Positions 5,793 to 28,334 of a stretch of DNA of 33,329 bases are shown piece by piece. The DNA is from Planctomycetia bacterium (GTDB lineage Bacteria > Planctomycetota > Planctomycetia > Gemmatales > Gemmataceae). Under the pieces are notes generated by a model, which saw only the letters and a program-made list of their open reading frames with translations, did not search any database and was not told where the DNA came from. Location of the stretch: contig JAEUIF010000306.1 of the NCBI GenBank assembly GCA_016795185.1, forward strand, positions 1-33,329, given 5' to 3'. Made by a program: the position numbers and the translations under genes. Each line of letters opens with the position of its first letter. The first letter of the stretch is position 1.

Positions 5793-8339
5793 ATGAAACT
5801 TCCCTCCCTGTTGTGGCTCGGTTCGCTCGTCGCATTCCTGCTCGGTCCCCTCGATCTCCAGGCCGGGGAAGGCAGAACAGAGAAGCCATCCCTACCGGCC
5901 GAGCCGCTGTTCAGCCGGCATATCGTGCCGCTCTTCAGCCGGCTGGGGTGCAATGCCGGCACCTGCCATGGGACAGTGCCGGGCAAGAATGGTTTCCGGC
6001 TCAGCCTCTTCGGCGCGGACCCCGGACTCGACCACTCCCGGCTACTGCGCGAGTTCGGCGGCCGTCGGCTCAATTTCACATCGCCGGAGCAAAGCTTGCT
6101 CGTCCTCAAGGCCACCGGACAGGTTCCCCACGAGGGTGGCAAGCGCATGGCGGTCGGCAGTCCGGAGCACACGGCACTGCTGGGCTGGATAGCGAAGGGG
6201 GCGCCGCTCGATCCGCTGGACAAGTCGCGCATGGCCGGCTTGCAGGTCAGCCCGCGGCAACAGACTCTGAAACCCGGCGAGCGCTATCGCTTGCAAGTGC
6301 GGGCCACGTTCAGCGACGGCAGCCAGGAAGATGTTACCTCGCTCTGCACGTTCGAGAGCCGGGATGGATCCGTGGTGATGGTGGACCGGGAGGGACAAGT
6401 CCAGGCGGTGGGCCCTGGCGGCGCGGCGCTGCTGGCCCGGTTCCGCGGCCAGCCGGCCGTCAGCCGGGTGGTCGTGCCCGCCGAGGCGAAGGCAGCCTTC
6501 CCCGAGGTCAAGGAACACAACTTCATCGACAAGCAGGTCCTCGACCAGCTCCGCCGGCTCAACATCCATCCGTCAGACGTGTGCGATGATGCGACGTTCC
6601 TGCGCCGGGCCACGCTGGACGTAAGGGGGGCACTGCCGACGCCCGACGAGATTCGCTCCTTTGTCGCCGACCAGGATCCGACCAAACGGGCCAAGAAGAT
6701 TGACGAGTTGCTGGCACGCCCCGGTCATGCCGCCCTGTGGGCGACGAAGTTCTCCGACCTGCTGCGGCCGCAGTTTCGCGAGGACAACCGCGTCTGGGCC
6801 GAGGCAGCCTATCAGCGCCGCTTCTACGAATGGCTCCGGGCCCGGTTCCTGGAGAACACGCCCTACGACGAGTTCGTCGAGCGCATCCTGCTGGCGACCA
6901 GCATGGAAGGCAAGACGAAAGAAGAGCTGCTGCAAAACTTGCAGCAAATGGCCGAGGAAGACGCCGCGCGTAGCCCGCACCTGAAGGCCTACCAGGAGCG
7001 GCGCACGCTCGACCTGTACTGGTTGCGAGCCAATTCCAACGGCGTGCAGGGGACGATTCAGTTCGCCCACGCGTTCCTGGGGCTGCGAATGCAGTGCGCC
7101 CAGTGCCACCGTCACCCCACCGACGTGTGGCAGCAGGATGACCTGCTGAGCTTCGCCAACTTCTTCAACCGCGTCGGCCGGCAGCGGGAGGGCACGGTAC
7201 CGCCGGCAGAAAAGGCCAAGCAGGCCGAGGAGATCAAGAAGCTCCAGGAGCAGGCCAAGAAGCTCCGCGACCAGGCCAAGGACAAATCGCTGGCCAAGGA
7301 CGACGCAGACAAGCTGCTGGCAGAGGCGGCCGACGTTGACAAGAAAGCCGGGATGATGAACCGGTTCAACTATCTCCGCAGTTCATTCACCCACGTCGAC
7401 CACTCGCCCAAGGGGCAATTCGTTGCCATCGACACGCCGCTGGGCAAGGCGGCTTCCAAGGAGTTTCGGTTGCTTGCCAGCCAAACACCAGTCAGCCTGC
7501 CGGCGGAAAAAGACCCGCGCGAAGTGGTGCTGGCCTGGTTGCGCCAGCCGGATAATCCGTTCTTCGCGCGGGCCATCGTCAACCGCGTCTGGGCACACTA
7601 CTTTGGCCGGGGAATCGTCGATCCGCCGGACGACCTGTCGCCGCTCAATCCGCCCACGCATCCCGAACTGCTGGACGAGCTTAGCCGGGGCTTCATCGAA
7701 AGCAAGTACGACCTGAAATGGCTGCACCGGGCTGTCCTCAACAGCCGGACCTATCAGCAATCGGCCCAGGCCAACGCGAGCAATCGCGCGGACAGGGTCA
7801 ACTACGCCCGTTTCGCTGTGCGCCGCCTACCGGCCGAGGTGGTGGTGGACGCCATCAATCACGCGACGGCCAGCGCCGAGACGTTTCCCGAGATTTCGCA
7901 TTTGCCCGCCGGGACCAAGGCGATCGAGGTTCCCGGCATGACGAACTTCAACCGCGACGGCAGTGGGGCGATGTCCGCCGCCTCGCTCGACTATGCCTTC
8001 CAGCTCTTCGGCCGTTCCAAACGCCAGGTGTCGTCGCAATGCGACTGCGATACCGGCAGCGAGTCGTCCCTGGTGCAGAGCCTCTACCTGGCCAGCTATG
8101 GCGACGTGCTCAAGAAACTCAACGCCCCCACGGGGCGCGTGGCCCGGCTCGTCAAGGACATTCCGGATGAGAACCAGCGGATTGAGGAAGCATTCCTGTG
8201 GGTGCTGGCACGCTTTCCCACCGCCGGCGAGCGCCAGAAATTCCAGGCGTTCCTGAAAGAGGCCAAGTCTCCCGAAGACGGGACCCGCGAAATCCTCTGG
8301 GTGCTGTTGAATGCCCATGAGTTCTTGCTGAACCGCTAA
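5793..8339 (+). CDS. DUF1549/DUF1553 (PSCyt2-PSD1) cytochrome-like secreted protein, 848 aa
   Basis: The ATG at 5793 has AGGAG upstream and starts a Sec signal (MKLPSLLWLGSLVAFLLG). The order is: a C-terminal part of a cytochrome-like module with C53-NAGT-C58-H59, a CX4CH variant of the haem-binding motif; a bacterial Ig-like (Big_2) domain at ~150-230; DUF1549 at ~242-450 with a true CXXCH (C435-A-Q-C438-H439, followed by RHPTDVW); a Lys/Glu/Gln-rich coiled coil at ~470-520; and DUF1553/PSD1 at ~565-848, with NPFFARAIVNRVWAHYFGRG and the usual family ending NAHEFLLNR. The family is abundant in planctomycetes, exported, and biochemically unassigned; the haem motifs suggest redox function. It lies 55 bases before a DUF1501 gene, its normal partner. 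A close paralogue lies at 22987-25560. Confidence 0.93.
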   Translation: MKLPSLLWLGSLVAFLLGPLDLQAGEGRTEKPSLPAEPLFSRHIVPLFSRLGCNAGTCHGTVPGKNGFRLSLFGADPGLDHSRLLREFGGRRLNFTSPEQSLLVLKATGQVPHEGGKRMAVGSPEHTALLGWIAKGAPLDPLDKSRMAGLQVSPRQQTLKPGERYRLQVRATFSDGSQEDVTSLCTFESRDGSVVMVDREGQVQAVGPGGAALLARFRGQPAVSRVVVPAEAKAAFPEVKEHNFIDKQVLDQLRRLNIHPSDVCDDATFLRRATLDVRGALPTPDEIRSFVADQDPTKRAKKIDELLARPGHAALWATKFSDLLRPQFREDNRVWAEAAYQRRFYEWLRARFLENTPYDEFVERILLATSMEGKTKEELLQNLQQMAEEDAARSPHLKAYQERRTLDLYWLRANSNGVQGTIQFAHAFLGLRMQCAQCHRHPTDVWQQDDLLSFANFFNRVGRQREGTVPPAEKAKQAEEIKKLQEQAKKLRDQAKDKSLAKDDADKLLAEAADVDKKAGMMNRFNYLRSSFTHVDHSPKGQFVAIDTPLGKAASKEFRLLASQTPVSLPAEKDPREVVLAWLRQPDNPFFARAIVNRVWAHYFGRGIVDPPDDLSPLNPPTHPELLDELSRGFIESKYDLKWLHRAVLNSRTYQQSAQANASNRADRVNYARFAVRRLPAEVVVDAINHATASAETFPEISHLPAGTKAIEVPGMTNFNRDGSGAMSAASLDYAFQLFGRSKRQVSSQCDCDTGSESSLVQSLYLASYGDVLKKLNAPTGRVARLVKDIPDENQRIEEAFLWVLARFPTAGERQKFQAFLKEAKSPEDGTREILWVLLNAHEFLLNR

Positions 8340-8394
8340 CCTGCCGCGCGCCGTCAGGGCCGCGTGCGTTTTCCTTCCCGAAAGGAGCCACGTC

Positions 8395-9747
8395 ATGCTG
8401 TCGGGTTGCTTGGATTTTCATACGCAGTACCGCTTGCACCGCCGCCAGTTTCTCAAGGTCGGCGGCAGCGGCCTGTTCGGCTTGAGCTGGGCGGTCATGC
8501 ACAAGGCCGAAGCGCTCGCCGCGCAGGCGCAGACCAAACGCCAGGCCAAGCAGCTGGTCATTCTCTGGTGCAACGGCGGCCTCGGGCACCTCGATTGCTT
8601 CGACCCCAAGCCGGACGCCCCGGACACCATCCGCAGCCCCTGGCCGGTGGCGCAGACGAAGGTCCCCGGCATGGTGCTTGGCGAGCGCGTCGGCAGCCTG
8701 GCGCGCGTGGCCGACAAGATCACGCTCCTGCGTTCCTGCAACGCCAAAGGCTATCCGCAGGAAGGCCAGCACGGCATCCCCGCCGCCTGGGCGTTCCTGA
8801 CGGGCACCCGGCGCGACACCCGCGAGCGGCAGCCCAATATCCCCCAGTCGCCGCTGTACGGGAACGCCATGGCGCATTTCCGCTTCGGCCCCGGCGACGT
8901 GCCGCCCAATGTGATTCTCGGCTCCGCGCGCAGCCACGACAGTTTCCTTGGCGTGGCCTGCGACCCGATGGAAATCAAGGTCAACGACCCCAGCGACAAG
9001 CTCAAGCAGATGCTGGCGCCGCCGCGCGACCTACTGGAGCTGGACACCCTGGAGCGGCGCAGGTCGCTCCTCGAATCGGTCAATGACCAGCTGCGCCAGC
9101 TTGACGCCGCAGACGACCTGATCGGCGGTTTGGACGAGTTCAAGCAAAAAGCGTTTGACCTGCTACGTTCACCGAAGCTGCGCGAAGCGGTGGACCTGAA
9201 GCGCGAGGACCCCAAATCGGCCGAGCGCTATGGCCGGGCGGACACGGGCCAGCGCGTGCTGACCGCCCGTCGGCTGATCGAGGCCGGCGTGCCTTGCGTC
9301 TTCGTCGATATCCCCGGCGGCTGGGATTGGCACGGTGGCAGCAACCTGGACCGCGCGGCCGGCGACCTGAAAGCCCTCGGCGACTCCGCTGCGGCGCTCA
9401 TCGAAGATCTCGATGCCCGCGGCCTCTTGAAATCCACGATCATCATGATCGGCAGCGAGATGGGCCACACGCCCAAGATCAACCGGCCGGGCTTCGGCCG
9501 CGAGCACTGGAACGACGCGCAATCGTTCCTGCTAGCCGGCGGCGGCCTGGCTGGTGGCACCGTGATCGGCGCCACCGACAAGGTCGGCGCCTACGTCACC
9601 AACCAGCACTACAACGCCACCAGTCTGGCACGAACGATTTACGGACAACTGGGCATCGACCCCGACCACGAGTTGTACACCGCCGACCGCCGGCCAGTGA
9701 AGCTGGTGCCGGATGACGCGGCGGTCATCAAGGAAGCGATCGGTTGA
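8395..9747 (+). CDS. DUF1501 family protein, Tat-exported, 450 aa
   Basis: The ATG at 8395 follows AAAGGAG. The N-terminus carries a twin-arginine motif, R16-R17-Q-F-L-K, then a weakly hydrophobic stretch (VGGSGLFGLSWAVM), so the protein is probably exported folded. DUF1501 belongs to the alkaline phosphatase/sulfatase-like superfamily. Visible family blocks include LVILWCNGGLGHLDCFDPKP, GVPCVFVDIPGGWDWHG, SEMGHTPKIN and the C-terminal LGIDPDHELYTADRRPVKLV. No substrate is known. It is the second gene of the PSD1-DUF1501 pair and ends just before a terminator-like hairpin. Two other DUF1501 genes lie in the window, at 21565-22935 and 26979-28334. Confidence 0.94.
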   Translation: MLSGCLDFHTQYRLHRRQFLKVGGSGLFGLSWAVMHKAEALAAQAQTKRQAKQLVILWCNGGLGHLDCFDPKPDAPDTIRSPWPVAQTKVPGMVLGERVGSLARVADKITLLRSCNAKGYPQEGQHGIPAAWAFLTGTRRDTRERQPNIPQSPLYGNAMAHFRFGPGDVPPNVILGSARSHDSFLGVACDPMEIKVNDPSDKLKQMLAPPRDLLELDTLERRRSLLESVNDQLRQLDAADDLIGGLDEFKQKAFDLLRSPKLREAVDLKREDPKSAERYGRADTGQRVLTARRLIEAGVPCVFVDIPGGWDWHGGSNLDRAAGDLKALGDSAAALIEDLDARGLLKSTIIMIGSEMGHTPKINRPGFGREHWNDAQSFLLAGGGLAGGTVIGATDKVGAYVTNQHYNATSLARTIYGQLGIDPDHELYTADRRPVKLVPDDAAVIKEAIG

Positions 9748-13453: not shown

Positions 13454-13489
13454 GGCAACCATCAGGTCGTGATGGTTCGGAGGATTGCC

Positions 13490-14324
13490 ATGAGACAACT
13501 GCAACTGTGGGCAGGCGGGCTGGCGATGCTAGCGTTCCTCGTGACAGTGGGACCGTCGGCAGTGTCGGCTGCGGACGCCCCCAAGGTGGGCAAGTTCCCG
13601 ATACCCGACTGGCACCCGGACGCGCGCTGGGAGGTAGAAGATCCTTTCGCGGGTTCCGTGCCGGGGTTTCTGGACGGCCCGCACCGCGAAAGCCAGCCGT
13701 TCGCTGGCAAAGTCGACTTCGTTTACGGCCCCACACAGGCGGGACGCAATGTTCTGCTCTCGTACGATCCGGAGTCGGAGTTCGTCCACATCGCAGCCGG
13801 AGTCGCCCGCGGCTACCTGGATGGGCCTTTCTCGCAGGCCCGCTTCGGCCGGAACGACTACACCGCCCGGCCGCGGTTCGTGGCCTCGCCCGACCGGCGC
13901 TACTACTACTTGATGGACGTGGAGAACCAACGTGCCTTGCGCCGCTGCGATCTGGAAAACCAGGAAGTGACCACGATCCGCCGCACGGTCAAGAACTTTG
14001 GCGGCATGACGGTGGACGACAAGGGCAACCTCCTGATCATCGATGGTGCGGAACTGCATTGGCTCGACCCTGCCGGCAAGCAAGAGAAGTCTGTCAGCCT
14101 CAAGCTGGAAGTAAAAGTCAGCGGCATCGGCGGCGCCGGGGCCTCCCGCGCGCTGGACGAAGTTCATGGACGGCTGTACGCGACCGCCATTGGCCCCACG
14201 CAGTGGTACGTGTGGTACTGGGACCTGAAGGACGGTTCGTTTCACGGCGTCCTGCCCGTGCCAACCAAGGGGATCGGACGCAAACGGAACGAGGCCGGGC
14301 CCTTCGCCGGCACCGACCTCTATG
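13490..14324 (+). pseudogene. Secreted beta-propeller gene truncated by an IS4-like element
   Basis: The ATG at 13490 has GGAGG six bases upstream and starts a Sec signal (MRQLQLWAGGLAMLAFLV). The protein then matches the intact gene at 18621-19733 block for block: FPIPDWHPDARWEVEDPFAG against FAIPVWHPDARWEVAEPFAG, ARGYLDGPFSQARF against ARGYLDGPLARARF, and WYVWYWDLKDGSFHGVLP against WYIWFWDLKDGSYHGVLP. Homology stops at GTDLY, exactly where the left terminal inverted repeat of the element begins (14325). The frame then runs to a TGA at 14350 inside the element. About 90 C-terminal residues present in the paralogue are missing and do not reappear on the other side of the element. A shortened product could still be translated. 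Confidence 0.85.
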
Positions 14325-15816: not shown

Positions 15817-16963
15817 ATGACCTGGCGCTGGTACTGGGGAGACTTGCACAGCCACTGTTCAATCAGCTACGGCCACGGCACCGTGAACCAGGCGCTGGCG
15901 CGAGCTCGACAGCAGCTTGATTTTTGTTCCATCACCGGGCATGCCTTCTGGCCGGACATGCCGACCGACCGCTCGGTCTACGCGGAGATCATCGACTACC
16001 ATACCGTGGGCTTTGCCCGGCTGGCACGGAACTGGGACAAGTTGCTCGCCCGGCAAGCCGCGGCGACAGAGCCGGGGAAGTTCATCGCCTTGCCCAGCTA
16101 CGAATGGCATTCGCTCCAGTACGGCGACCACAACGTCTATGCCGCCGGCCCTGACTTGAAGCTGGTTGATGCTCCCGATCTGCCGGCCCTTCGTGAACAA
16201 GCCAAGCAGCAAGGCGCAATCGTTATCCCGCATCACATCGGCTACGCGGCGGGTTATCGCGGTATCGACTGGCAACACTTCCGCGCTGAGGCTTCGCCAT
16301 TCGTGGAGATCTATTCGCTGCACGGCTGCTCGGAAAGCGAAGCGGCGCCCTACTCGATGCTGCACGACATGGGGCCGCGCGACGCTGGCAGTACCGCTGA
16401 AGCGGGCTGGGACCTGGGCCACCGCTTCGGGGTCATCGGCTCGACCGACCATCACAGTGCCTACCCCGGCAGCCACGGCGATGGCCGCCTGGGCGTCATT
16501 GCCTCGGCTCTGACACGGGACGCTATCTGGGAAGCGCTTCTGGCCCAACGGGTGTGTGCCGCCACCGGAGACCGGATCGACGCCCGCCTGTTTGTGAACG
16601 ATGCCGGGATCGGCGCGACAATTCAAGCGCCAGGCCCGCGACCGATCAAGGTCCAGGTCCGCGGCACCGATGCGCTCGACCGGGTCGAACTGCTGAAAAA
16701 TGGCCGCGTGCTGCGCCACTGGTGGCCGGACGGCAACGAATCGGCGACGGTCTCGAACAGGCATCGGCTGCGCTTGACCTGGGGCCGGGGCCGCAAGCAC
16801 CGTCCCGTCCGCTGGGATTGTCAACTGAGTTTGTCCGAAGGGGCCATTACCGAGGTCGAGTCCTGCTTTTCCGGGCCGCCGGTGGTCGCGCCAGTTACCC
16901 AGATCGGCGACGCCGAGGTGGCGGACGACAGTGTGGTTGACGCCCATCTGGGCCGAGCGCTGA
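15817..16963 (+). pseudogene. PHP-type (DUF3604-like) metallophosphoesterase gene with internal deletion
   Basis: The ATG at 15817 is preceded by GGAG. The N-terminal ~350 residues carry metal-binding motifs of the PHP fold: GDLHSHCSISYGHG near residue 8, SITGHAFWPDM, SYEWHS, IPHHIGY and GSTDHH. The family hydrolyses phosphate esters, but this branch has no assigned substrate. Around 16880-16930 the sequence leaves the family pattern. In the +1-shifted frame the expected ending, VWLTPIWAER followed by TGA at 16961-16963, is present. The simplest reading is a deletion of the last large segment (about 100 or more codons) that also shifted the frame, so translation now runs on into the next gene. 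A single open frame of 481 codons (15817-17262) results, but I do not regard it as a natural fusion protein. Confidence 0.72.
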
Positions 16964-16989
16964 TGGTCGCCCTCCTCGCGGAGATACCG

Positions 16990-17295
16990 ATGGCCGATGC
17001 TTTTCGTGTAGCTGTGCTCGGATTGACGCACGACCACGTCTGGAACAACCTACAGGAGCTACAGGCATCGGGGCGCGGGACGCTCGTGGCCGCCGCCGAT
17101 CCTCATCCGCCCTTGCTCGACCAGGTCCAGCAACTCCACGGCTGCCCGGTTTACAGCGACCTTGAGGCGCTGCTGGAACGCGAGCACTTTGACGCGGTTT
17201 ATGTCTTTGCCGACAACGCCACGGGTGCCCGCCTGGCGGAACTGGCTGCCAGCCGAGGCTAGCACGTGCTGATCGAGAAGCCGATGGCCGCCAGA
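16990..17295 (+). pseudogene. Gfo/Idh/MocA oxidoreductase remnant with amber codon and lost C-terminus
   Basis: An ATG at 16990 has its own GGAG six bases upstream. It starts MADAFRVAVLGLTHDHVWNN, the Rossmann dinucleotide-binding start of the Gfo/Idh/MocA family, and continues through FDAVYVFADNATGARLAELA. At 17260-17262 an amber codon replaces the Lys of the conserved G-K-H-V-x-x-E-K-P block; the following HVLIEKPMA is intact in the same frame, with the catalytic-site Lys still present. Family similarity ends at about 17295, shortly before the end of the convergent gene at 17328, so roughly the C-terminal two thirds of the protein are gone. It is in frame with the damaged PHP gene only because of that gene's deletion. 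Confidence 0.78.
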
Positions 17296-17327: not shown

Positions 17328-18599
17328 TCATTTCCCTTTCAGAATCCGATAGCCGATCTGGATTGGCATGTCGCCCTTTTCGGGATGCTTTTCGTAGGCG
17401 ATCAGCGTGACACCGGTGCCATTGGACGCCACAGTCGGCCGGATGGCCGGGTTTTCAGCGGCGCCCGAAACATGAAGCATGTCCCCGGGCTGCCCGTCGC
17501 TGGAGATGCGCGTCAAGAAGACCTTCTCCGCGGGCGGCCGAGCGTTGCCACCCATGTCCCAGGCGGCGATGAAGCCGGTGCCGTCCCAGGCCGCTTGCGG
17601 GTTGCGGATGCGCGGCGGTTCCTTGTCGCCCTTGCCGGTCAGCAGAAACGTTCTGTCCAGCTGGCCATCTTGCTTGAAGAGCGCCGCGTGAGCGTCGTTC
17701 AAGGCGGCACCTCGTCCCAGGAAGATGCTCGTCGTCCAGGTACCCAGGTAGCCTTTGGGGCCAGCAGCCAGGGACATGGGGAATTGGCCGTACTGCCCGC
17801 CTGGGGCCTTCTTTTCCGTATTGCTGATCGGTGGAGTCTCGTAGGTCGGCTGGTCGGCGGCCTTGCCATCCTGCACGAAATGGCTGCCTGCTAGCGGCTT
17901 TCGCGCGAAATTGTTGTGACTGCCCAGCCAGAAGAGCAGGCTTTTCCCGTCATTGGCGGCGCTGGCCACCACTGGCCCAAACCGGCTCACCGGGGCCTTT
18001 TCCGTGACGAGCAAACTGCCTTCGGGGTCCCGCACCTTGCCTTCGGGCGAAACGCGGGCACCATAAATCTCGTAGCGATTGCCGGAGCGCGCATCCTGCC
18101 AAACCACCAGGAAGTTCTTGCCATCCCAGACCACTTGCGGCAGCGCCTGATTGTGCTTGCTGCCCGCGATCAGGAAGCCGGCCGTGTCCAGCACCTCGCC
18201 TTCCGGCGTCACGCGCGCGCCGTACACGTCCCAGTCCTTTTCGTTCCGCAAGTCCTGCCAGACGACGAGAAAGACGCCCGCACCGAAGGCGAGGCGCGGC
18301 CTTTCCTGCAAGTCCTTGGCCGCGCAGACCGAGAACGGTTTGGCGTCGAGAACCTTCCCCGCTGCATCCACCCGGCAGGCGACGATGTCGCCGGCATACT
18401 TGATTTCCTTGCGGAGATCGCCCTCCTCCAGGTTGCCGGACTGCCAGGCAACGAGGAAGACACCCTTGCCGAACGCCGCTGCTGGGGTAAAGGCATCCTG
18501 TCCCTCCGCCAGTGGCAGAAGGGCTTCAGGGGCCAACGACTCCTCGGCCAACGCCGTTCCCAGGAATCCGCACAAGAGCAGAGCTATCGTCGAGCGCAT
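17328..18599 (-). CDS. Secreted VWQD-repeat (propeller-like) protein, 423 aa
   Basis: The ATG at 18599 follows AAAGGAAAG and opens a clean Sec signal (MRSTIALLLCGFLGTALAEE). The mature part consists of repeats built on an F-L-V-x-W-Q-[SD] strand, each followed by the source/version pair x-x-x-R-V-x-x-x-G-x-V-x-D: VFLVAWQSG ... ACRVDAAGKVLD, VFLVVWQDLR ... GARVTPEGEVLD and NFLVVWQDARSG ... GARVSPEGKVRD, with weaker copies later (GYLGTWTTS, GFIAAWDMG). Such repeats usually fold as propeller blades. No catalytic motif is seen. It begins 21 bases after the stop of the preceding gene and is last in the minus-strand operon. No function is assigned. Confidence 0.87.
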   Translation of the reverse strand: MRSTIALLLCGFLGTALAEESLAPEALLPLAEGQDAFTPAAAFGKGVFLVAWQSGNLEEGDLRKEIKYAGDIVACRVDAAGKVLDAKPFSVCAAKDLQERPRLAFGAGVFLVVWQDLRNEKDWDVYGARVTPEGEVLDTAGFLIAGSKHNQALPQVVWDGKNFLVVWQDARSGNRYEIYGARVSPEGKVRDPEGSLLVTEKAPVSRFGPVVASAANDGKSLLFWLGSHNNFARKPLAGSHFVQDGKAADQPTYETPPISNTEKKAPGGQYGQFPMSLAAGPKGYLGTWTTSIFLGRGAALNDAHAALFKQDGQLDRTFLLTGKGDKEPPRIRNPQAAWDGTGFIAAWDMGGNARPPAEKVFLTRISSDGQPGDMLHVSGAAENPAIRPTVASNGTGVTLIAYEKHPEKGDMPIQIGYRILKGK

Positions 18600-19766: not shown

Positions 19767-21404
19767 TCAGTGCTTGCAATCGTCCCGTGTGCTTCCGCCC
19801 GGCCTGCGAATGACATTGGTGCCGCAATGGGCGCCACCGTCGCCTCGATGCAAAGCGTCCCAGCCGTCGAGGAAAAGGGGCCGAGACGACCCGCGCTGCA
19901 ACGCCGCGCGCCAGGCCAGGGCGAAAAGATCGCTGTCGTCGTCGGCTGGGTCTCCGCGCGGGCCGAATGGACGGAGAAGGACGACGTCGTTGTCGAGTGG
20001 CACGAGGTTGACGGGGTTGGGCAACAGTGCGCCAGCGCACTCGCCCTGTTCGTCGGCGGAAAAGATTACGGGAAGGCGGAGCACAGCGTCGTCGCCAATA
20101 CCCAGTGCTTCCAGCGCTGCCGGGATGCCAGTGCCTTTGGCCCGAAGGCGCGCGGTGCATCGCTTGGCTGTCTTGCGCAAAGCCGAATCGTGGGCCAATT
20201 CGCCGGCGGTAACGAGCGCTGGAAACTCCTGGCCCGCGCCGTCGCGCCACATCTTGGCGTCCTCCACGGCCACAAAGCGGCTCGTGGCGTCGGGCGTTTC
20301 GAGCCAGATGGGCATGGTTTCACAACGGCCTGCTCGGGCCGCGGCAACGACCTGTGACACTTCGGTGCCGCGCAGGTCCCAGACGAAGTCGATGGTGATG
20401 CGTCGGCCCTCGACCTTGTGAATCCGCGCCACCTGGCCGGCACCGGTACCGCTGATGATGCGCACGTACTTCCATTTGCCAGCCGGCAAGCCCGGAGCGG
20501 CGGTTTCGATGAGTCGCGCGCCCGCACCAGTCACGGAGCCGGCGGTCTCGGCGCTGCTGTGTGCATAGAAGAGTGCCCGCTCGACAGGCGCGGAATCCAG
20601 CAGGCGCAGGCCCGCCTCGAAGTCGGGGAGCACCACGCGGAATCCCGGCTGCCCAGGAGCGCCAACGAAGGCCAGAATTTCGTCCACATGGCCGACCTTC
20701 AGCCAGTCCGTGTCAATCTCGAGCAGTTTTCCGTCGGGACCGGCCTGAATGCGCTGGTGCCGGAAATAGTCCTTGATGTCCTGCTGGAGAGAGCGCCCCA
20801 CAAGGAGCCGCCCATGTGGGAAGCCTGGCAAGGGCGGTGAGGCGAGGACATTGCCGCCCCCGTCGAACCGGCGCCGCTCCGCCTCGGCGCGCTCTGGGCT
20901 GACCTCGACTCGTTCCCATCCCTGCTTCGCAAAGAGCGGATCGCCCCAGCCATCGAGGTTCCGACTGCCGGGCAGGCGCAGGACGGCGCGCCGACCGCGC
21001 CGCTCGCCGACAAGCCAATCGTCGGTGGGCCACGGCGCGAACAGGGCCGACGCCGCCCGGCCATCGGGGCCGAACGCGGGCACGGCAAAGACGCGCTCGG
21101 CGCCGAGTCCCGGGACGGCTACGAGGCGCTGGGCCCAACCGCCCGTTTCACATGCGATGACGTGCTCCACGGCCGCCGTCGCTGACGGAACGATGAAGCC
21201 ATCGTTCACCGCAAGCGCACGGCCCTGTGCATCCGGTTCCAGCGTGGTGGAGCGGAGAGGGACGCTTGGGTTCTCCGCCGCAGCGCTGCATCCCGTGAGA
21301 CAGGCGACCATAATGAAGAACCACCGAGACGCTGCCCCTGGGGAGCACGCCGCCGTCTTCATCAGCAGTCCGCGTGCCTTGACGGTCTGCCCGGCAGCCG
21401 CCAT
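19767..21404 (-). CDS. Protein-arginine deiminase (PAD) family lipoprotein, 545 aa, with internal insertion
   Basis: The family is recognised from several blocks shared with animal peptidylarginine deiminases, which convert peptidyl-arginine to citrulline: GNVLASPP ... GRLLVG (near 184-203), DWLKVGHVDEILAFV with His239 and Asp241, LGIGDDAVLRLPVIF and LPNPVNLVPLDN ... LLRPFGP (435-481), and the nucleophile block GGAHCGTNVIRRP with Cys527. The first catalytic Asp is probably in PTDDW (128-129). The N-terminal Ig-like domains of mammalian PADs are absent. A lipobox (V-A-C-L-T-G-C39) predicts a lipid-anchored exported protein. His-to-Cys spacing is about 288 residues, against about 174 in human PADs; the extra ~110 residues (about 285-395) contain YVRIISGTGAGQVARI. 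The start at 21404 follows AGGGGA; the frame is open back to a TTG at 21572 overlapping DUF1501, so the start is not certain. Confidence 0.92.
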   Translation of the reverse strand: MAAAGQTVKARGLLMKTAACSPGAASRWFFIMVACLTGCSAAAENPSVPLRSTTLEPDAQGRALAVNDGFIVPSATAAVEHVIACETGGWAQRLVAVPGLGAERVFAVPAFGPDGRAASALFAPWPTDDWLVGERRGRRAVLRLPGSRNLDGWGDPLFAKQGWERVEVSPERAEAERRRFDGGGNVLASPPLPGFPHGRLLVGRSLQQDIKDYFRHQRIQAGPDGKLLEIDTDWLKVGHVDEILAFVGAPGQPGFRVVLPDFEAGLRLLDSAPVERALFYAHSSAETAGSVTGAGARLIETAAPGLPAGKWKYVRIISGTGAGQVARIHKVEGRRITIDFVWDLRGTEVSQVVAAARAGRCETMPIWLETPDATSRFVAVEDAKMWRDGAGQEFPALVTAGELAHDSALRKTAKRCTARLRAKGTGIPAALEALGIGDDAVLRLPVIFSADEQGECAGALLPNPVNLVPLDNDVVLLRPFGPRGDPADDDSDLFALAWRAALQRGSSRPLFLDGWDALHRGDGGAHCGTNVIRRPGGSTRDDCKH

Positions 21405-21564: not shown

Positions 21565-22935
21565 TCAGGCAATCACTTCCTTGATTAACGGGACATCCTC
21601 GGTGATCAGCTTCAATGGCCGGTTGTCTGGCGTCAACAACTCGTGATCCGGGTCAATCCCGAGCAGATGGTAGAGCGTCTTCCCCAGGCTGGCGATCTTG
21701 TAATCCTTGTCCTTGACATAGGCCGCATGGGCGTCGGTCGCGCCGACGACCTGCCCGGACTGGAAGCCGCCGCCAGCCACCAGCACGAACTGCGCCGCTG
21801 CCCAGTGTTCCCGGCCATAGGGTTTGCCCTGGCCGACCTTCGGCGTGCGGCCCATCTCGCCCAAGGCCACGACCATGGTGTTTTCGAGCAAGCCGCGCGC
21901 GTCGAGGTCCTCCAGCAAGGACGGGAGGGCCGCATCGAGACAGGCCAAGTCCGGCAGCGCCTTGTCCAAGCCGTTGCCACTGTGCCAGTCCCAGTAGGCA
22001 AAGTCCACGTAGACGAACGGCACGCCCGCCTCGATCAGCCGGCGCGCCATCAACACCTTTCGGCAATGATAGTTGCCTTTGATATTCGTGTTGCCGTAGT
22101 GCTGGATCTGGCAGCCGTAGCGTTCTCGGTTCTTGGCAGGCTCCTTCTCCAGATCGAGCGCTTCGCGCAGCTTCGGCGCGCGAAGCAGGTCAAACGCCTT
22201 TTGCTGGAAGCGATCCAGGCCCTCGATGATCGGGCTGGCGGCATCCTGCCTGCGGATCTGCTGCTCCAGGGACCGCAGCATGTCCACGTTGCGGTCGAAG
22301 CCGGCCAGGTCGAGCTGCGGTGGCGTCAGCATCCGTTCGGTCTGGTCATCGCGGCGGTCGTCGGGAATGCTGAGCGGATCGTAAGCCGGGCCCAGAAAAT
22401 TCTCGCTCAGTCCTGTGGCATGCGAGTTGATGTTGCCCAGCGCCACGAAGCTCGGCACCTCTTTGGGGGTCGGCAGCAGCTTGGATGTGACACAGCCAAT
22501 CATCGGGTACTTCGGCGTGCCGCGCAGGCCGCGTGGGTTGCCGGTCTTCCAGCTCAGCCCGGCATGATGATCGCCTGCCTCCGGGTAGCCCTTGGAATGC
22601 ACCGAGCGCAGCACGCTGTACTTGTTCGCCAGCTTGGCCAGGCGCGGCAAGTGCTCGCAAACTTCCAGGCCGGGCACCACGGTCTGGATTGGCTTGAAGG
22701 GCCCGCGCACGTCCGCGGGCGCGTCCGGCTTCATGTCGAAGGTATCCTGATGCGGCGGCCCGCCGTGCAGCCAGATGAAGATCACCTGCTTGGCTGTCGC
22801 TTTGCTGGCAGCGGCGGCCTGAGCCTGGGCCTGGAACAGGTTGGCCCAGGTCATGCCAAACAGCCCAACTCCACCTACCTGCAACATCTCGCGGCGGTTC
22901 AAGGAATTTCGGAAGGACTGGCATCCCAGGTTCAT
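21565..22935 (-). CDS. DUF1501 family protein, Tat-exported, 456 aa
   Basis: The ATG at 22935 has GAGGA seven bases upstream. A twin-arginine motif (NRREMLQVGGVGLFGM) near residue 13 predicts Tat export. The alkaline phosphatase-like family blocks are present: FIWLHGGPPHQDTFDMKP, GVPFVYVDFAYWDWHS, ALGEMGRTPKVGQGKPYGRE and LLGIDPDHELLTPDNRPLKL. Compared with the copy at 8395 it belongs to the more usual subtype, with HGGPPHQDTFD where that copy has NGGLGHLDCFD. It lies 51 bases after the PSD1-family gene and upstream of the PAD gene. Its stop is at 21565; the PAD frame may start shortly after or just overlap it. Confidence 0.94.
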   Translation of the reverse strand: MNLGCQSFRNSLNRREMLQVGGVGLFGMTWANLFQAQAQAAAASKATAKQVIFIWLHGGPPHQDTFDMKPDAPADVRGPFKPIQTVVPGLEVCEHLPRLAKLANKYSVLRSVHSKGYPEAGDHHAGLSWKTGNPRGLRGTPKYPMIGCVTSKLLPTPKEVPSFVALGNINSHATGLSENFLGPAYDPLSIPDDRRDDQTERMLTPPQLDLAGFDRNVDMLRSLEQQIRRQDAASPIIEGLDRFQQKAFDLLRAPKLREALDLEKEPAKNRERYGCQIQHYGNTNIKGNYHCRKVLMARRLIEAGVPFVYVDFAYWDWHSGNGLDKALPDLACLDAALPSLLEDLDARGLLENTMVVALGEMGRTPKVGQGKPYGREHWAAAQFVLVAGGGFQSGQVVGATDAHAAYVKDKDYKIASLGKTLYHLLGIDPDHELLTPDNRPLKLITEDVPLIKEVIA

Positions 22936-22986
22936 GGCAGCATCCTCTGGCGCGGGCCGACCGTCAGCCGGCCGATGGTTTGCGGA

Positions 22987-25560
22987 TCAATGATTTAGCA
23001 GAAACTCACTGGTATTCAGCAGGGTCCACATCAGGCCCTCCAAGCCCTTCTGGGGTGAGGGGCTCTTTTTCAGGTAGTCCAGGCAGATTTGTCGCTCCGC
23101 CTCGGTTGGCGGGCGGCTCAGCGTCCACAGGTAGGTCTCGTCGATGCGCCGGGCGTCGTCGGCATGGTCCTTGACGATCTGGGCCACGCGACCCTTCGGA
23201 TCGTTGATCTTCTTCAGAACTTCGGGATGATTGGCCAGGTACAGGCTCTGCAAGAGCGCCGGCCTGGTTTCCCGATCGCAGTCGCACAGCGCCTCGGTGT
23301 TTCGAGTCGGACGGCCGAAGACCGTGAAGGTGTACTCCACGAACTTACTGCCGACGGCGCCGTCCAGCACCGAGACCGGTACTTCCAGCGCCCGCGCCCC
23401 CGGCAGGACAGTGGCGCCGAACTTTTCGCTACTGCCCGTCGCGTGATTGAGTGCGTCGAGAAACACCTCGGCCGACAAGCGGCGGCGGTAGAACGAGGCG
23501 AAGTTGCGTGTGTCGCCCTGGTTGCCCGCATGAGTGCGGTACGAAAGCTGGTAAGCCCGGCTATGCAGGATCGTCCGGTGCAGCCATTGCAGATCGTACT
23601 TGCTGGCGACGAAGCCCGCGCACAACTCGCGCAGCAACTCGGGATGCGAGGGTGGATTGAGCGGCGACAGGTCATCCACCGGTTCGACGAGGCCGCGCTC
23701 GAAGTAGTGGGCCCAGACGCGGTTGACGATGGCCTTGGCGAAAAATGGATTCTCCGGTTGTCGCATCCAGGCGACGACCAGCGGCCGGGGGTCCTGATCC
23801 CCTGCCAGCGCGACGGCCTGTTTTTCACCCAGGAAGCGAAACTGCTCCGACTGCTGTGTCCCCAGCGGACTGGTCACGCTGGCCCAGCCGAAGGGATTAC
23901 CCGGGGCGTGGTAGACCTGGGAGCAATCGAGAATAGCGACGGCCCTGCCGATTGCGCCGCTGCGGTCTTGCAGCTGCTTGGCCTCCCGCTGAATCTTTTC
24001 CGCCTCGGCCTTGTCCTTGCCCTTGGCCTGGTCTTGCAGCTGCTTGGCCTGGTTGGCCAGTTCCTTGCCTTCGTCTTGCAGCTTTTTCTTTTCCTCGGCG
24101 GTCAGGGCGCCGCCCGCCTTCTTCTTGATCTCGGCCGCGTCCTTGACTGACAGCACGCCCGTGTTGGCCCGGACGCGGCTAAAGAAGTTGGCGAAGCTCA
24201 ACAGGTCGTCCTGCGTCCACACATCGGTCGGATGGCGATGGCACTGCGCACATTGCAAGCGTAATCCCAGGAAGGCATGGGCCACCTGGACCGCGCCCTT
24301 GACACCGGTCGTATCAAACCGATGCCAGTAGAGATCGAGGCTCTTCCGCTGGGCATACTTCGAGGAATTATCGCGTGCCCCAGCCTGGTCTTGCTCCGTC
24401 TGTTCCAGGACTTCGCGGATCCACTCATCGCGCGTGCGGCCGTCGAGACTGGTCGCCGTCAACATGCGCTCGACCATTTCGTCATAAGGTGTGTTCTCTT
24501 GCAGCCGGGCACGAATCCACTCATAGAACCGTCGCGTGCTGGCCGGCGCGGGTTGATGGGTGAAATCCTGGTAGCTGATCCGCGGCCGGAGAATATCGCA
24601 GAACTTGGTCGCCCACAGGGCGGAGTAGCCAGGCCGCGCCAGCAGTTCCTCGATCTTCTTGGAGCGTTTCTCCGGCGCGGGGTCCGCCTGAAAGGCACGG
24701 ACCTCATCCGGGGTCGGCAAGGCTCCCGTCACGTCGAGCGTCGCGCGGCGGAGAAACGTCGCGTCGTCGCACACGTCGGAAGACGGCACCTGAAGTTGTC
24801 GCAGCTTGTCGAAGAGGTGCCGGTCGATGAAGTTATTTTCCGGGACTCTTGGAAAGTCCCCGCGCGCCTCGGCTGGCACCAGTACGATCGACATCACGGG
24901 CTGGGCGCAAAAGCGAGCGACTACGGCCGCGTCCCCAGGACTGCTTGCCCGGATCAGCCCGGCGCGATTGACTTCCGCCACAACAGTGTCGCGCGACTCA
25001 AAGGAACAGAGATTGGTGACATCTTCCACGGAACCATCGGCAAAAGTGGCCTCCACGCGCATCTGACAGCTCTGGCCGGGCTTCAACGTTTGCCGGGCCG
25101 GGGTCGCGGTCAGCTGGCGAACCCGACCCTGTTCGGGAGCATCCCGGGAAGCCCCGCGGTCAATCCAGTCATGGAGCAATTGGTACTCCTGGCTGCCGGC
25201 CCCCAGCCGCTTGCCGCCCTCGTGCTTGACCTGACCAGTCGCCTTGAGCAGCAGGAGGCTAGCGGCAGGATCCTCCAGGTTTAGTCGTCGCCCGCCAGCC
25301 TCGCGAACCAGTCTTTCATGGTCCAGCGCCGGTTCGACACCAAACAAGCTCAGACGGAAGCCATTCTTGCCTTGCACAGCGCCATGGCACAGGCCGGCAT
25401 TGCAGCCCAAGCGGCTGAACAACGGCACCACGTGCCGGCCGAACAGCGGTGTGGCCTGCTGAGGGCTCGATCCGGTCGCGGATTGTGCGCTTGCTCTCTG
25501 CTCGACGCTCAGGAGCAGCAGGCAAGCGGAAGAGGCCAGCCATAGTGGAGAGCGGAGCAT
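22987..25560 (-). CDS. DUF1549/DUF1553 (PSCyt2-PSD1) cytochrome-like secreted protein, 857 aa
   Basis: The ATG at 25560 was chosen because GGAG lies five bases upstream and it begins a Sec signal (MLRSPLWLASSACLLLLS); the frame is open 32 codons further but without signal character. Domain order equals the paralogue at 5793: C53-NAGL-C58-H59 (CX4CH), Big_2-like domain, DUF1549 with LQCAQCHRHPTDVW (CXXCH), a Lys/Gln/Glu-rich coiled coil, then DUF1553 with NPFFAKAIVNRVWAHYFERG and the ending NTSEFLLNH. The coiled coil includes two copies of a KQLQD(Q/R) unit, encoded by an almost identical 18-20 base direct repeat near 23970 and 24035. It is first in the operon with DUF1501, PAD and two propeller-like genes, and a LexA-like palindrome lies about 60 bases upstream. 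Confidence 0.93.
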   Translation of the reverse strand: MLRSPLWLASSACLLLLSVEQRASAQSATGSSPQQATPLFGRHVVPLFSRLGCNAGLCHGAVQGKNGFRLSLFGVEPALDHERLVREAGGRRLNLEDPAASLLLLKATGQVKHEGGKRLGAGSQEYQLLHDWIDRGASRDAPEQGRVRQLTATPARQTLKPGQSCQMRVEATFADGSVEDVTNLCSFESRDTVVAEVNRAGLIRASSPGDAAVVARFCAQPVMSIVLVPAEARGDFPRVPENNFIDRHLFDKLRQLQVPSSDVCDDATFLRRATLDVTGALPTPDEVRAFQADPAPEKRSKKIEELLARPGYSALWATKFCDILRPRISYQDFTHQPAPASTRRFYEWIRARLQENTPYDEMVERMLTATSLDGRTRDEWIREVLEQTEQDQAGARDNSSKYAQRKSLDLYWHRFDTTGVKGAVQVAHAFLGLRLQCAQCHRHPTDVWTQDDLLSFANFFSRVRANTGVLSVKDAAEIKKKAGGALTAEEKKKLQDEGKELANQAKQLQDQAKGKDKAEAEKIQREAKQLQDRSGAIGRAVAILDCSQVYHAPGNPFGWASVTSPLGTQQSEQFRFLGEKQAVALAGDQDPRPLVVAWMRQPENPFFAKAIVNRVWAHYFERGLVEPVDDLSPLNPPSHPELLRELCAGFVASKYDLQWLHRTILHSRAYQLSYRTHAGNQGDTRNFASFYRRRLSAEVFLDALNHATGSSEKFGATVLPGARALEVPVSVLDGAVGSKFVEYTFTVFGRPTRNTEALCDCDRETRPALLQSLYLANHPEVLKKINDPKGRVAQIVKDHADDARRIDETYLWTLSRPPTEAERQICLDYLKKSPSPQKGLEGLMWTLLNTSEFLLNH

Positions 25561-25617
25561 GGGTGCTCCTTCTTGGGTGGGGAGGAATGTTGCGGTCTGT
25601 AACGGAAAGCAGGCAGG

Positions 25618-25641
25618 GTCGAACATCTGTTCCCGTTCGAC
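25618..25641. promoter_or_regulatory. Nested palindrome resembling a GAAC-N4-GTTC (LexA-type) box
   Basis: Two inverted repeats overlap 58-81 bases upstream of the PSD1-PAD operon start. CGAACATCTGTTCC at 25620-25633 fits the Gram-positive-type LexA pattern CGAAC-N4-GTTCG with one mismatch. GTCGAAC (25618-25624) also pairs with GTTCGAC (25635-25641). The position suits an operator. An 8-base GAAC-N4-GTTC match is expected by chance about once in 65 kb, so the LexA reading is tentative. Confidence 0.35.
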
Positions 25642-25696
25642 GAGAGTGTATTTCACGCTCGCCAGGTCGAAAAGGAAAGTCTAAACTGCGACTAAA

Positions 25697-26978: not shown

Positions 26979-28334
26979 ATGCTCACCGTCTACTCTCAGC
27001 CCCTCGTTGGCAAGTCGCGCGCCGGCATCTCCCGGCGCAGCTTTCTCCAGGCCGGGGGTCTGTGCATTGGCGGCCTGACGCTCGCCGACGTCTTGCGCTT
27101 GCAAGCCAGGGGAGCGACGGATCGGCGGGGCCGCAATAAGGCCGTCATCATGATCTATCTGCCAGGAGGCCCCAGTCACATCGACATGTTCGACCTCAAA
27201 CCTGATGCGCCCGTCGAGTACCGGGGCGAGTTTCGGCCGATCCGGACGAATGTCCCTGGCATGGACGTCTGCGAACATCTGCCACTGCACGCGAAGATGG
27301 CAGACAAGCTAGCCATCGTCCGGAACATGGTGTTCGGCAATTCTTTCCACAATGGGCCCTTGGAGCTCGAAACCGGCTTCGGCGGCAAGGGGCTTGGCCC
27401 GCGCCCGTCTCGGCCAGGCATCGGCTCCGTGGTCAGCCGGATACAGCGGGACGCCGGCGGCGCGGACGGTATGCCTCCTTACGTCGCTCTGAGCTCGAAC
27501 ATGACTGGCTACCCTGTCTACCTGGGGGAAGCCCACAAGCCGTTCATTCCAGTTGGACAGTTCCAGACCCTTGCGTTGCCCAAGGAGATGACCGCGGAAA
27601 AATTGCAAGAGCGCACCGAGCTTCTGCACGCTTTCGACTCACTCAACCGCGACCTGGATAGGCAGCGACTGACCGCGCATGACGCCTTCACGGCACAGGC
27701 GCTGGAAATGATCACCTCCAATCGGGCACGCGACGCTTTCGATGTCAGCAAAGAGCCCGATTCGGCCCGCGCCCGGTATGGCTCAACCGGGACCGCGTTG
27801 CTTCAGGCCCGTCGCCTGGTCGAGGCCGGCGTGCGAGTGGTTTCCCTCTCGTTTAGCGGCGTCGAACGTGGCGAGAAGGCCGGTCAATGCGCCGGTACGT
27901 GGGATAACCACGGCAACATCTTCAACGATCTCAAACTGGTGGTGCCCCGCCTGGATCGAGCCCTGTATGCCCTGGTGACCGACCTGCACGATCGTGGGCT
28001 GGACCAGGACGTAGCCGTAGTCGTCTGGGGCGAATTCGGCCGTACCCCGAAAGTCGGCCGGGACGAAGGCACGGGCAATCGCTCGGACGGCCGCAATCAC
28101 TGGACGGAAGCGGGTTTTGCCCTGATGGCAGGAGGCGGTTTGAAGATGGGGCAGGTCATCGGCGCCACGGACGCCCGCGGCGGCCGCCCGGTGGGCGGGG
28201 CTTACCGACCTCAGAACGTGCTCGCAACTCTTTACCATGTGCTCGGCATTGACCCCCGCTCGACTCTGCCCGATCTCACGGGTCGGCCAATCTACCTGCT
28301 CGATGACCCCGAGCCGATTAAGGAACTGGTGTAA
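26979..28334 (+). CDS. DUF1501 family protein, Tat-exported, 451 aa
   Basis: The ATG at 26979 has GGAG six bases upstream. The twin-arginine motif is SRRSFLQAGGLCIGG near residue 18, giving Tat export. Family blocks are IMIYLPGGPSHIDMFDLKP, MPPYVALSSN, GTWDNHGNIF, VVVWGEFGRTPKVGRDEGTG, NHWTEAGFALMAGGG and LGIDPRSTLPDLTGRPIYLL. This is the GGPSHID...WGEFGRTP subtype, distinct from the other two DUF1501 copies here. It is followed after 32 bases by a DUF1080 gene rather than by a PSD1 partner, although a PSD1-type gene starts further on at 33219. Confidence 0.94.
   Translation: MLTVYSQPLVGKSRAGISRRSFLQAGGLCIGGLTLADVLRLQARGATDRRGRNKAVIMIYLPGGPSHIDMFDLKPDAPVEYRGEFRPIRTNVPGMDVCEHLPLHAKMADKLAIVRNMVFGNSFHNGPLELETGFGGKGLGPRPSRPGIGSVVSRIQRDAGGADGMPPYVALSSNMTGYPVYLGEAHKPFIPVGQFQTLALPKEMTAEKLQERTELLHAFDSLNRDLDRQRLTAHDAFTAQALEMITSNRARDAFDVSKEPDSARARYGSTGTALLQARRLVEAGVRVVSLSFSGVERGEKAGQCAGTWDNHGNIFNDLKLVVPRLDRALYALVTDLHDRGLDQDVAVVVWGEFGRTPKVGRDEGTGNRSDGRNHWTEAGFALMAGGGLKMGQVIGATDARGGRPVGGAYRPQNVLATLYHVLGIDPRSTLPDLTGRPIYLLDDPEPIKELV

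What the first reader, a model, noticed from the sequence alone, without database searches (positions are those of the whole stretch)
19767..21404. Bacterial PAD lipoprotein with a ~110-residue domain inserted between its active-site blocks
Seen: the VGHVDE block (His239/Asp241) and the HCGTN block (Cys527) of peptidylarginine deiminases are both intact, with several other shared blocks, behind a lipobox. The His-to-Cys distance is about 288 residues against about 174 in human PADs. The surplus (about 285-395, DNA about 20220-20552) contains YVRIISGTGAGQVARI, a motif resembling small beta-domains of exported proteins. Known: PAD-family enzymes citrullinate arginine residues in proteins; bacterial relatives exist but few are studied. 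Inference: a surface-anchored deiminase whose insert could gate the active site or bind the envelope, making citrulline an envelope protein modification in this lineage.
Basis: partly seen in the sequence, partly recalled or inferred. Interest (0 to 1): 0.82.

Follow-up and report, generated by a model that had tools for sequence, protein, structure and literature searches.

The report
Arginine deiminase carrying phage-tail-type domain
A planctomycete surface lipoprotein looks like the animal enzymes that turn protein arginine into citrulline, but a small domain of a kind found in phage tails is spliced into its catalytic fold and it lacks the residues of calcium site 1, so it is probably an unusual, calcium-free relative of a medically important enzyme family.

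Summary
ORF 19767-21404(-) is a PF03068 PAD with a lipobox, an intact Asp128/His239/Asp241/Cys527 set and a 288-residue His-Cys spacing; 21 of 36 bacterial PADs surveyed have 167-194. The surplus (residues 283-395, DNA 20220-20558) is a real domain. Its core is an uncatalogued "GTGAGQ" beta module. It is shared with an RHS-like ORF of the same genome, another planctomycete ORF and phage ORFs; its model resembles phage tail and tailspike domains. It is interrupted by a PAD-only stretch of about 26-35 residues. It defines a 4-member clade: the window gene, a paralog and two other MAGs.

"Distinctive" needs qualification. The same loop holds more than 40 residues in 13 of 36 bacterial PADs, once with an unrelated phage-tail module, so it is an insertion hot spot. 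I infer a calcium-independent, extracytoplasmic deiminase. PAD and two predicted secreted propeller-like proteins form a cassette duplicated in the genome. Substrate, activity and the insert's role are untested. Known family, new variant.

The parts
19767..21404 (-). PAD-family lipoprotein gene, 545 aa as called from ATG 21404; likelier start M15 at 21362
   Evidence: Pfam PF03068 99 bits; paralog at 66% identity
21288..21299 (-). lipobox LTGC, lipidated Cys39
   Evidence: Gly38-Cys39 invariant in the four clade members; sequence reading
21021..21023 (-). catalytic Asp128 (PAD4 Asp350 equivalent)
   Evidence: alignment with human PAD4
20679..20696 (-). VGHVDE block, His239/Asp241 (PAD4 His471/Asp473)
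19815..19829 (-). HCGTN block, nucleophile Cys527 (PAD4 Cys645)
20220..20558 (-). inserted domain, residues 283-395
   Evidence: segment is 11-26 residues in 23 of 36 bacterial PADs, 116-124 in this clade; profile hit at exactly these coordinates
20433..20450 (-). GTGAGQ signature, residues 319-324, of the beta module
   Evidence: shared with RHS-like ORF, L077 ORF and phage ORFs
20295..20372 (-). nested PAD-only stretch R345-T370 splitting the module between ...VWDL and PDATS
   Evidence: absent from all module copies outside PADs
20844..20846 (-). Leu187 at the position of Ca-site-1 ligand Glu411
   Evidence: ligand list from PMC13023937
21012..21026 (-). Thr127...Leu131 at the positions of Ca-site-1 ligands Gln349/Glu353
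   Evidence: ligand list from PMC13023937
18621..19748 (-). propeller-like protein A, 375 aa, predicted secreted; 18 bases downstream of the PAD gene
   Evidence: same order in the paralogous locus, 77% identity; no Pfam family
17328..18599 (-). propeller-like repeat protein B, 423 aa, predicted secreted
   Evidence: 75% identity in the paralogous locus; sub-threshold TIGR04275 beta-propeller match
21565..22935 (-). DUF1501 protein upstream, same strand
   Evidence: PF07394
22987..25656 (-). PSCyt2/PSD1 (DUF1549/DUF1553) protein with Big_2 domain, upstream, same strand

Best explanation
The gene encodes an extracytoplasmic, lipid-anchored, single-domain deiminase of the PAD (PF03068) pentein family. 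Shown by sequence: the Asp/His/Asp/Cys catalytic set and Trp347 are intact, PAD_M is not detectable and little room is left for it, and the three side-chain ligands of Ca site 1 are gone. Inferred: the enzyme is held active without calcium and hydrolyses the guanidino group of arginine in proteins or peptides outside the cytoplasmic membrane to citrulline. A phage-tail-type GTGAGQ beta module sits in the loop between the His/Asp and Cys blocks and carries a nested PAD-specific stretch. Inferred: it works as an accessory surface or substrate-positioning domain at the rim of the catalytic domain, probably replacing some of the scaffold role that PAD_M and calcium play in animal PADs. The PAD gene is probably co-transcribed with two predicted secreted propeller-like proteins that are plausible partners or substrates (inference from synteny and 18-21 base gaps).
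For: PF03068 at 99 bits. Catalytic residues aligned with human PAD4 and with 32 bacterial PADs outside the clade. Foldseek's best matches are human PAD4, E 4e-21. Ca-site-1 positions are T, L/I and L/M in all four clade members, but Q in 31 of 32, E/Q in 31 of 32 and E/D in 30 of 32 others. Asp350 equivalent lies only 89 residues after the lipid Cys and Pfam finds no PAD_M. An HMM built only from module copies outside PADs finds the insert in all four clade PADs: E 6.5e-9, 1.3e-4, 1.4e-4, 2.8e-4. The insert's model is beta-rich; its best structural matches are phage tail tube and tailspike proteins and phage pectate-lyase-superfamily proteins. Insert dN 0.21/dS 0.90, core dN 0.18-0.23/dS 0.69-1.14. 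PAD-A-B cassette duplicated at 66/77/75% identity. Clade support 100; insert-free L041, which keeps the Ca ligands, is its sister (86).
Against: No activity data for any clade member. R372 is lost in all four and R374 in two, so peptidyl specificity is doubtful. The insert has low confidence in the full-length model (pLDDT about 30-60) and fold matches of the isolated insert are weak (PDB best E 0.067). The propeller neighbours are absent beside the two MAG homologues, so they are not obligatory partners. Ca-independence rests on residue loss alone, and sites elsewhere could replace it.
Confidence: 0.5

Rival explanations
1. A small-guanidine deiminase: the enzyme acts on free arginine, agmatine or short guanidino compounds scavenged outside the cell, not on proteins. 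The insert narrows the cleft or only stabilises it.
For: R372 and R374, which bind the substrate backbone in human PADs (established knowledge), are lost or not consistently kept in the clade. Other pentein hydrolases act on small guanidines (established knowledge).
Against: Closest by sequence and fold to PADs; no arginine deiminase family in Pfam. R374 also varies among other bacterial PADs, so its loss is a weak indicator.
Confidence: 0.2
2. The insert is a tolerated passenger: a mobile beta module that landed in a permissive surface loop and does nothing specific.
For: The same loop is extended by apparently unrelated sequences in 13 of 36 bacterial PADs, as expected of a permissive site. 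The module occurs in unrelated protein contexts.
Against: The insert is as conserved as the core across members of distant planctomycete groups, and the nested stretch has invariant residues (GxC, MPIW).
Confidence: 0.15
3. The loop extension is ancestral: the insert descends from the 72-88-residue extension of L042-type PADs and diverged, with convergence on the GTGAGQ motif.
For: Same loop and similar right-hand boundary (...YPADISPSEVI / ...FPALVTAGELA). L040 (Chitinophagaceae) has a 168-residue segment with a look-alike YIRFYQGPAQGWVAKI.
Against: Module profiles do not detect the L042-type or L040 extensions above shuffled controls; hhalign probability for L040 is 4.5%. The sister sequence L041 has no insert.
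Confidence: 0.1
4. A decayed or regulatory PAD: the fold is kept but Ca-site loss leaves it inactive, and it serves as a binding protein.
For: All three Ca-site-1 ligands lost. Human PAD6 is listed in the PDB as inactive.
Against: All four catalytic residues and Trp347 kept in all four clade members, with dN/dS well below 1.
Confidence: 0.1

Closest known systems
Human PAD2/PAD4 (PF03068 with PAD_M and PAD_N)
   Same: Asp350/His471/Asp473/Cys645 equivalents, Trp347, LP-x-x-F and PN-x-VN blocks, pentein fold match
   Different: no detectable PAD_M or PAD_N, Ca site 1 ligands lost, R372 lost, about 105 extra residues in one loop, lipoprotein signal
Insert-free planctomycete and verrucomicrobial PADs (L034, L041, L005-L025)
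   Same: same catalytic residues and block order
   Different: loop of 11-26 residues, Ca-site-1 ligands kept (E353 as Q in L034), clearly longer N-terminal part in most
Other loop-extended bacterial PADs (L042, L045-L047, L051; L027/L030)
   Same: extension in the same loop between the His/Asp and Cys blocks
   Different: no detectable sequence relation to the window insert; L027 carries a different phage-tail module (PHROG tail families, E 2e-6); the L042 type has a second insertion before Cys
GTGAGQ beta module of phage structural ORFs (L088-L092), RHS-like ORF (C1188/L037) and L077 ORF
   Same: core VRI-sGTGAGQ-xARI ... W ... PDaTS-x-Y
   Different: in the PADs the module is split by a 26-35 residue PAD-only stretch and sits inside an enzyme domain
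Porphyromonas gingivalis PPAD (PAD_porph)
   Same: secreted bacterial deiminase, pentein fold (established knowledge)
   Different: separate family; Cummings et al. place it outside the PADI group (PMC8826395); Pfam assigned only PF03068 here

Membership tests
PAD family, PF03068 (PAD_C) | profile match above curated cut-off (25 bits) | tested here: met
   99 bits, E 3.7e-28
PAD family, PF03068 (PAD_C) | catalytic Asp350, His471, Asp473, Cys645 and Trp347 | tested here: met
   D128, H239, D241, C527, W125
PAD family, PF03068 (PAD_C) | PAD pentein fold | tested here: met
   AF2 model pTM 0.75; best PDB matches human PAD4, prob 1.00, TM 0.58; residue distances not available
PAD family, PF03068 (PAD_C) | Ca site 1 side-chain ligands Q349, E353, E411 (described as conserved among PADIs in PMC8826395) | tested here: not met
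   T127, L131, L187; lost in all four clade members. A regulatory feature; catalytic membership does not depend on it
PAD family, PF03068 (PAD_C) | PAD_M middle domain (PF08527), found in divergent form in bacterial and fungal PADIs (PMC8826395) | tested here: not met
   no Pfam match; 89 residues between lipid Cys39 and Asp128. Pfam also missed PAD_M in some other bacterial PADs
PAD family, PF03068 (PAD_C) | substrate-backbone arginines R372/R374 | tested here: inconclusive
   R372 lost in all four; R374 kept in WIN and L002 only
PAD family, PF03068 (PAD_C) | converts peptidyl-arginine to citrulline | not testable with these tools
   needs biochemistry
GTGAGQ beta module | detected by a profile built only from copies outside PADs | tested here: met
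   WIN E 6.5e-9; other three clade PADs 1.3e-4 to 2.8e-4; best shuffled control 0.024
GTGAGQ beta module | fold like phage tail/tailspike small beta domains | tested here: inconclusive
   model pLDDT 68; BFVD phage pectate-lyase-superfamily protein TMq 0.54, rmsd 1.9, E 8.6e-4; PDB best E 0.067
Bacterial lipoprotein | signal with lipobox ending in Cys | tested here: met
   LTGC36-39; Gly-Cys invariant in four homologues; no signal predictor was available

The most novel reading that the evidence does not exclude
The loop between the His/Asp and Cys blocks of bacterial PADs is a docking site that has been loaded more than once, independently, with phage-tail-type beta modules. In the window clade this coincided with loss of PAD_M and Ca site 1, giving constitutive, calcium-free surface deiminases whose targets are chosen by the borrowed phage-type module.
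Probability: 0.3. Interest if true: 0.72.

Novelty: new variant of a known kind. Interest (0 to 1): 0.52.

Why it matters
Animal PADs are studied as strictly calcium-switched enzymes. A naturally minimal PAD that keeps the catalytic set but lacks Ca site 1 and PAD_M offers a direct test of what calcium does in this family, and possibly a calcium-free deiminase scaffold. It would also put protein citrullination, if confirmed, on the surface of a free-living planctomycete, and it shows phage-tail-type domains being spliced into an enzyme's catalytic fold at a preferred site.

Tried and rejected
No PAD relatives in viral contigs. First genome-contig scan with two sequences found nothing; a four-sequence alignment found 15 loci. 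KOW (E 0.064-0.085) and PHROG (best 0.006, one member) hits for the insert were judged chance; no PDB relative by sequence. Homology of the L040 extension was suspected by eye but not supported (hhalign probability 4.5%, HMM E 0.34). Operon partners as a conserved system: rejected as obligatory, because L038/L039 lack proteins A and B and G415 has A but no PAD of this clade. First tree run failed on thread count, rerun. Five PADs were skipped in the census because my motif patterns missed their Cys or His block. No paper linking planctomycetes with peptidylarginine deiminase and none naming GTGAGQ in the open-access library; absence there is not proof of novelty.

Full report
What is there. 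The window is one whole contig (33,329 bases, G000:C1079) of a 9.5-Mb planctomycete-like genome in 1,500 contigs, 93.8% complete and 4.1% contaminated by the tool's estimate. ORF 19767-21404(-) encodes 545 residues; Met15 (21362) is the likelier start. Pfam finds PF03068 only, 99 bits, in two stretches, 168-272 and a C-terminal one. Sequence search of the PDB hits human PAD2, PAD3 and PAD4, again in two pieces around a gap. Mapping to human PAD4 gives Trp347=W125, Asp350=D128, His471=H239, Asp473=D241, Cys645=C527. Spacing H239-C527 is 288.

Is the insert distinctive? I aligned 36 bacterial PADs from three searches. The His-Cys spacing is 167-194 in 21 of them. The loop that in the window runs from F279 to P395 is 11-26 residues in 23 PADs and more than 40 in 13. 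The window gene and its paralog have 116, the two MAG homologues 121 and 124, L040 (Chitinophagaceae) 168, the L042/L045/L046/L047/L051 group 72-88, L027 76, L050 59 and L043 47. The insert is therefore neither universal nor unique: it is clade-specific content in a loop that tolerates insertions. L027's content matches phage tail families (PHROG 1101, 2885, 11439; E 2e-6 to 1e-5), while the profile of the window's module does not detect it.

What is the insert? A match to residues 267-401 turned up in a 2,790-residue RHS-like ORF of the same genome (L037). A further copy was found in another planctomycete ORF (L077), and five viral contigs carry it in ORFs that look structural. All share VRI-sGTGAGQ-xARI ... 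W ... PDaTS-x-Y. A profile built only from copies outside PADs detects the insert in WIN at E 6.5e-9 and in the three other clade PADs at 1.3e-4 to 2.8e-4; the best of 500 shuffled controls reaches 0.024. In WIN the match falls in two pieces because the PADs have an extra stretch of about 26 residues (somewhat longer in the MAG homologues) between ...VWDL and PDATS, with invariant Gly-x-Cys and MPIW. No Pfam, PHROG or PDB family covers the module convincingly. Modelled alone it is mostly beta (pLDDT 68, pTM 0.66). PDB matches are weak (best E 0.067), but the top row is a phage tail tube and the next three are phage tailspikes; the BFVD library gives a phage pectate-lyase-superfamily protein at rmsd 1.9 over 104 columns. 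I read it as a phage-tail-type beta module. The direction of transfer is not established.

Selection. Between WIN and its paralog dN/dS is about 0.24 in the insert and 0.16-0.34 in the two core parts; between L038 and L039 about 0.17 against 0.18-0.23 (Nei-Gojobori, dS 0.56-1.14). The insert is kept about as strictly as the enzyme.

Published work describes Ca sites 1 and 3 as conserved across PADI homologues (PMC8826395). The side-chain ligands of site 1 are residues 349, 353 and 411 of PAD4 (PMC13023937; residue 349 is Gln in the PAD4 sequence). In all four clade members these are Thr, Leu/Ile and Leu/Met. Among the 32 other bacterial PADs, 349 is Gln in 31, 353 is Glu or Gln in 31 and 411 is Glu or Asp in 30. 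L043 lacks all three too. In WIN only 89 residues separate the lipid cysteine from Asp128, and Pfam finds no PAD_M. Calcium independence is an inference from these losses.

Phylogeny and distribution. The four insert-bearing PADs form a clade with support 100; insert-free L041, which keeps the ligands, is sister at 86. In the order of the window genome only the window genome itself has this clade, out of 102 genomes. In the class of G219, 2 of 29 have it. In a phylum sample 25 of 392 genomes have any PF03068 match. This patchiness suggests horizontal movement or repeated loss; I did not test which.

Neighbourhood. PSCyt2/PSD1, DUF1501, PAD, propeller-like A and propeller-like B lie in a row on the minus strand with gaps of 18-161 bases. 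PAD-A-B recurs in order on contig C1305 at 66, 77 and 75% identity, with PSCyt and DUF1501 genes next to it in the other orientation. The two MAG homologues lack A and B, so the cassette is local to this genome as far as seen.

Function. Shown: family membership, catalytic residues, insert identity, loss of Ca site 1 ligands. Predicted: lipid anchoring, PAD_M absence. Inferred: deiminase activity, calcium independence, extracytoplasmic protein or peptide substrate, targeting or scaffold role for the insert. R372 is lost in all four and R374 in two, so a small-guanidine substrate remains a serious rival.

Noticed in passing
L043:6324-9878 (Enhygromyxa salina SWB007): PAD fused to a ubiquitin carboxyl-terminal hydrolase domain (UCH, PF00443, E 3e-19) in a bacterium; this PAD also lacks all three Ca-site-1 ligands.
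   Followed up: partly
L030:79-2856 (G160:C272): A PAD with a GTGAGQ-like module near its N-terminal end and a different phage-tail module in the catalytic loop.
   Followed up: partly
L026:433-2889 (G011:C116): PAD with an insertion of about 95 residues one loop later, after the helix, of unknown kind (no PHROG match).
   Followed up: partly
window 13484-14323 (+): Third, more diverged copy of propeller-like protein A (40% identity) without a PAD gene beside it.
   Followed up: no
window 5793-9747, 21565-25656, 26979-28334: Several paralogous PSCyt (DUF1549/1553) and DUF1501 genes, two of them as adjacent pairs; the copy at 22987-25656 also carries a Big_2 domain.
   Followed up: no
window 17328-18599 (-): Protein B has repeated FLVVWQD motifs with weak similarity to a beta-propeller repeat family and to the CV39L lectin family.
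   Followed up: no
window 15817-17262 (+): ORF with a weak DUF3604 match and a C-terminal GFO_IDH_MocA NAD-binding match at residues 396-481 that ends with the ORF.
   Followed up: no
L042, L045, L046, L047, L051: These PADs have a second insertion of roughly 90-115 residues between the GP(R) block and the catalytic Cys, besides the loop extension.
   Followed up: no
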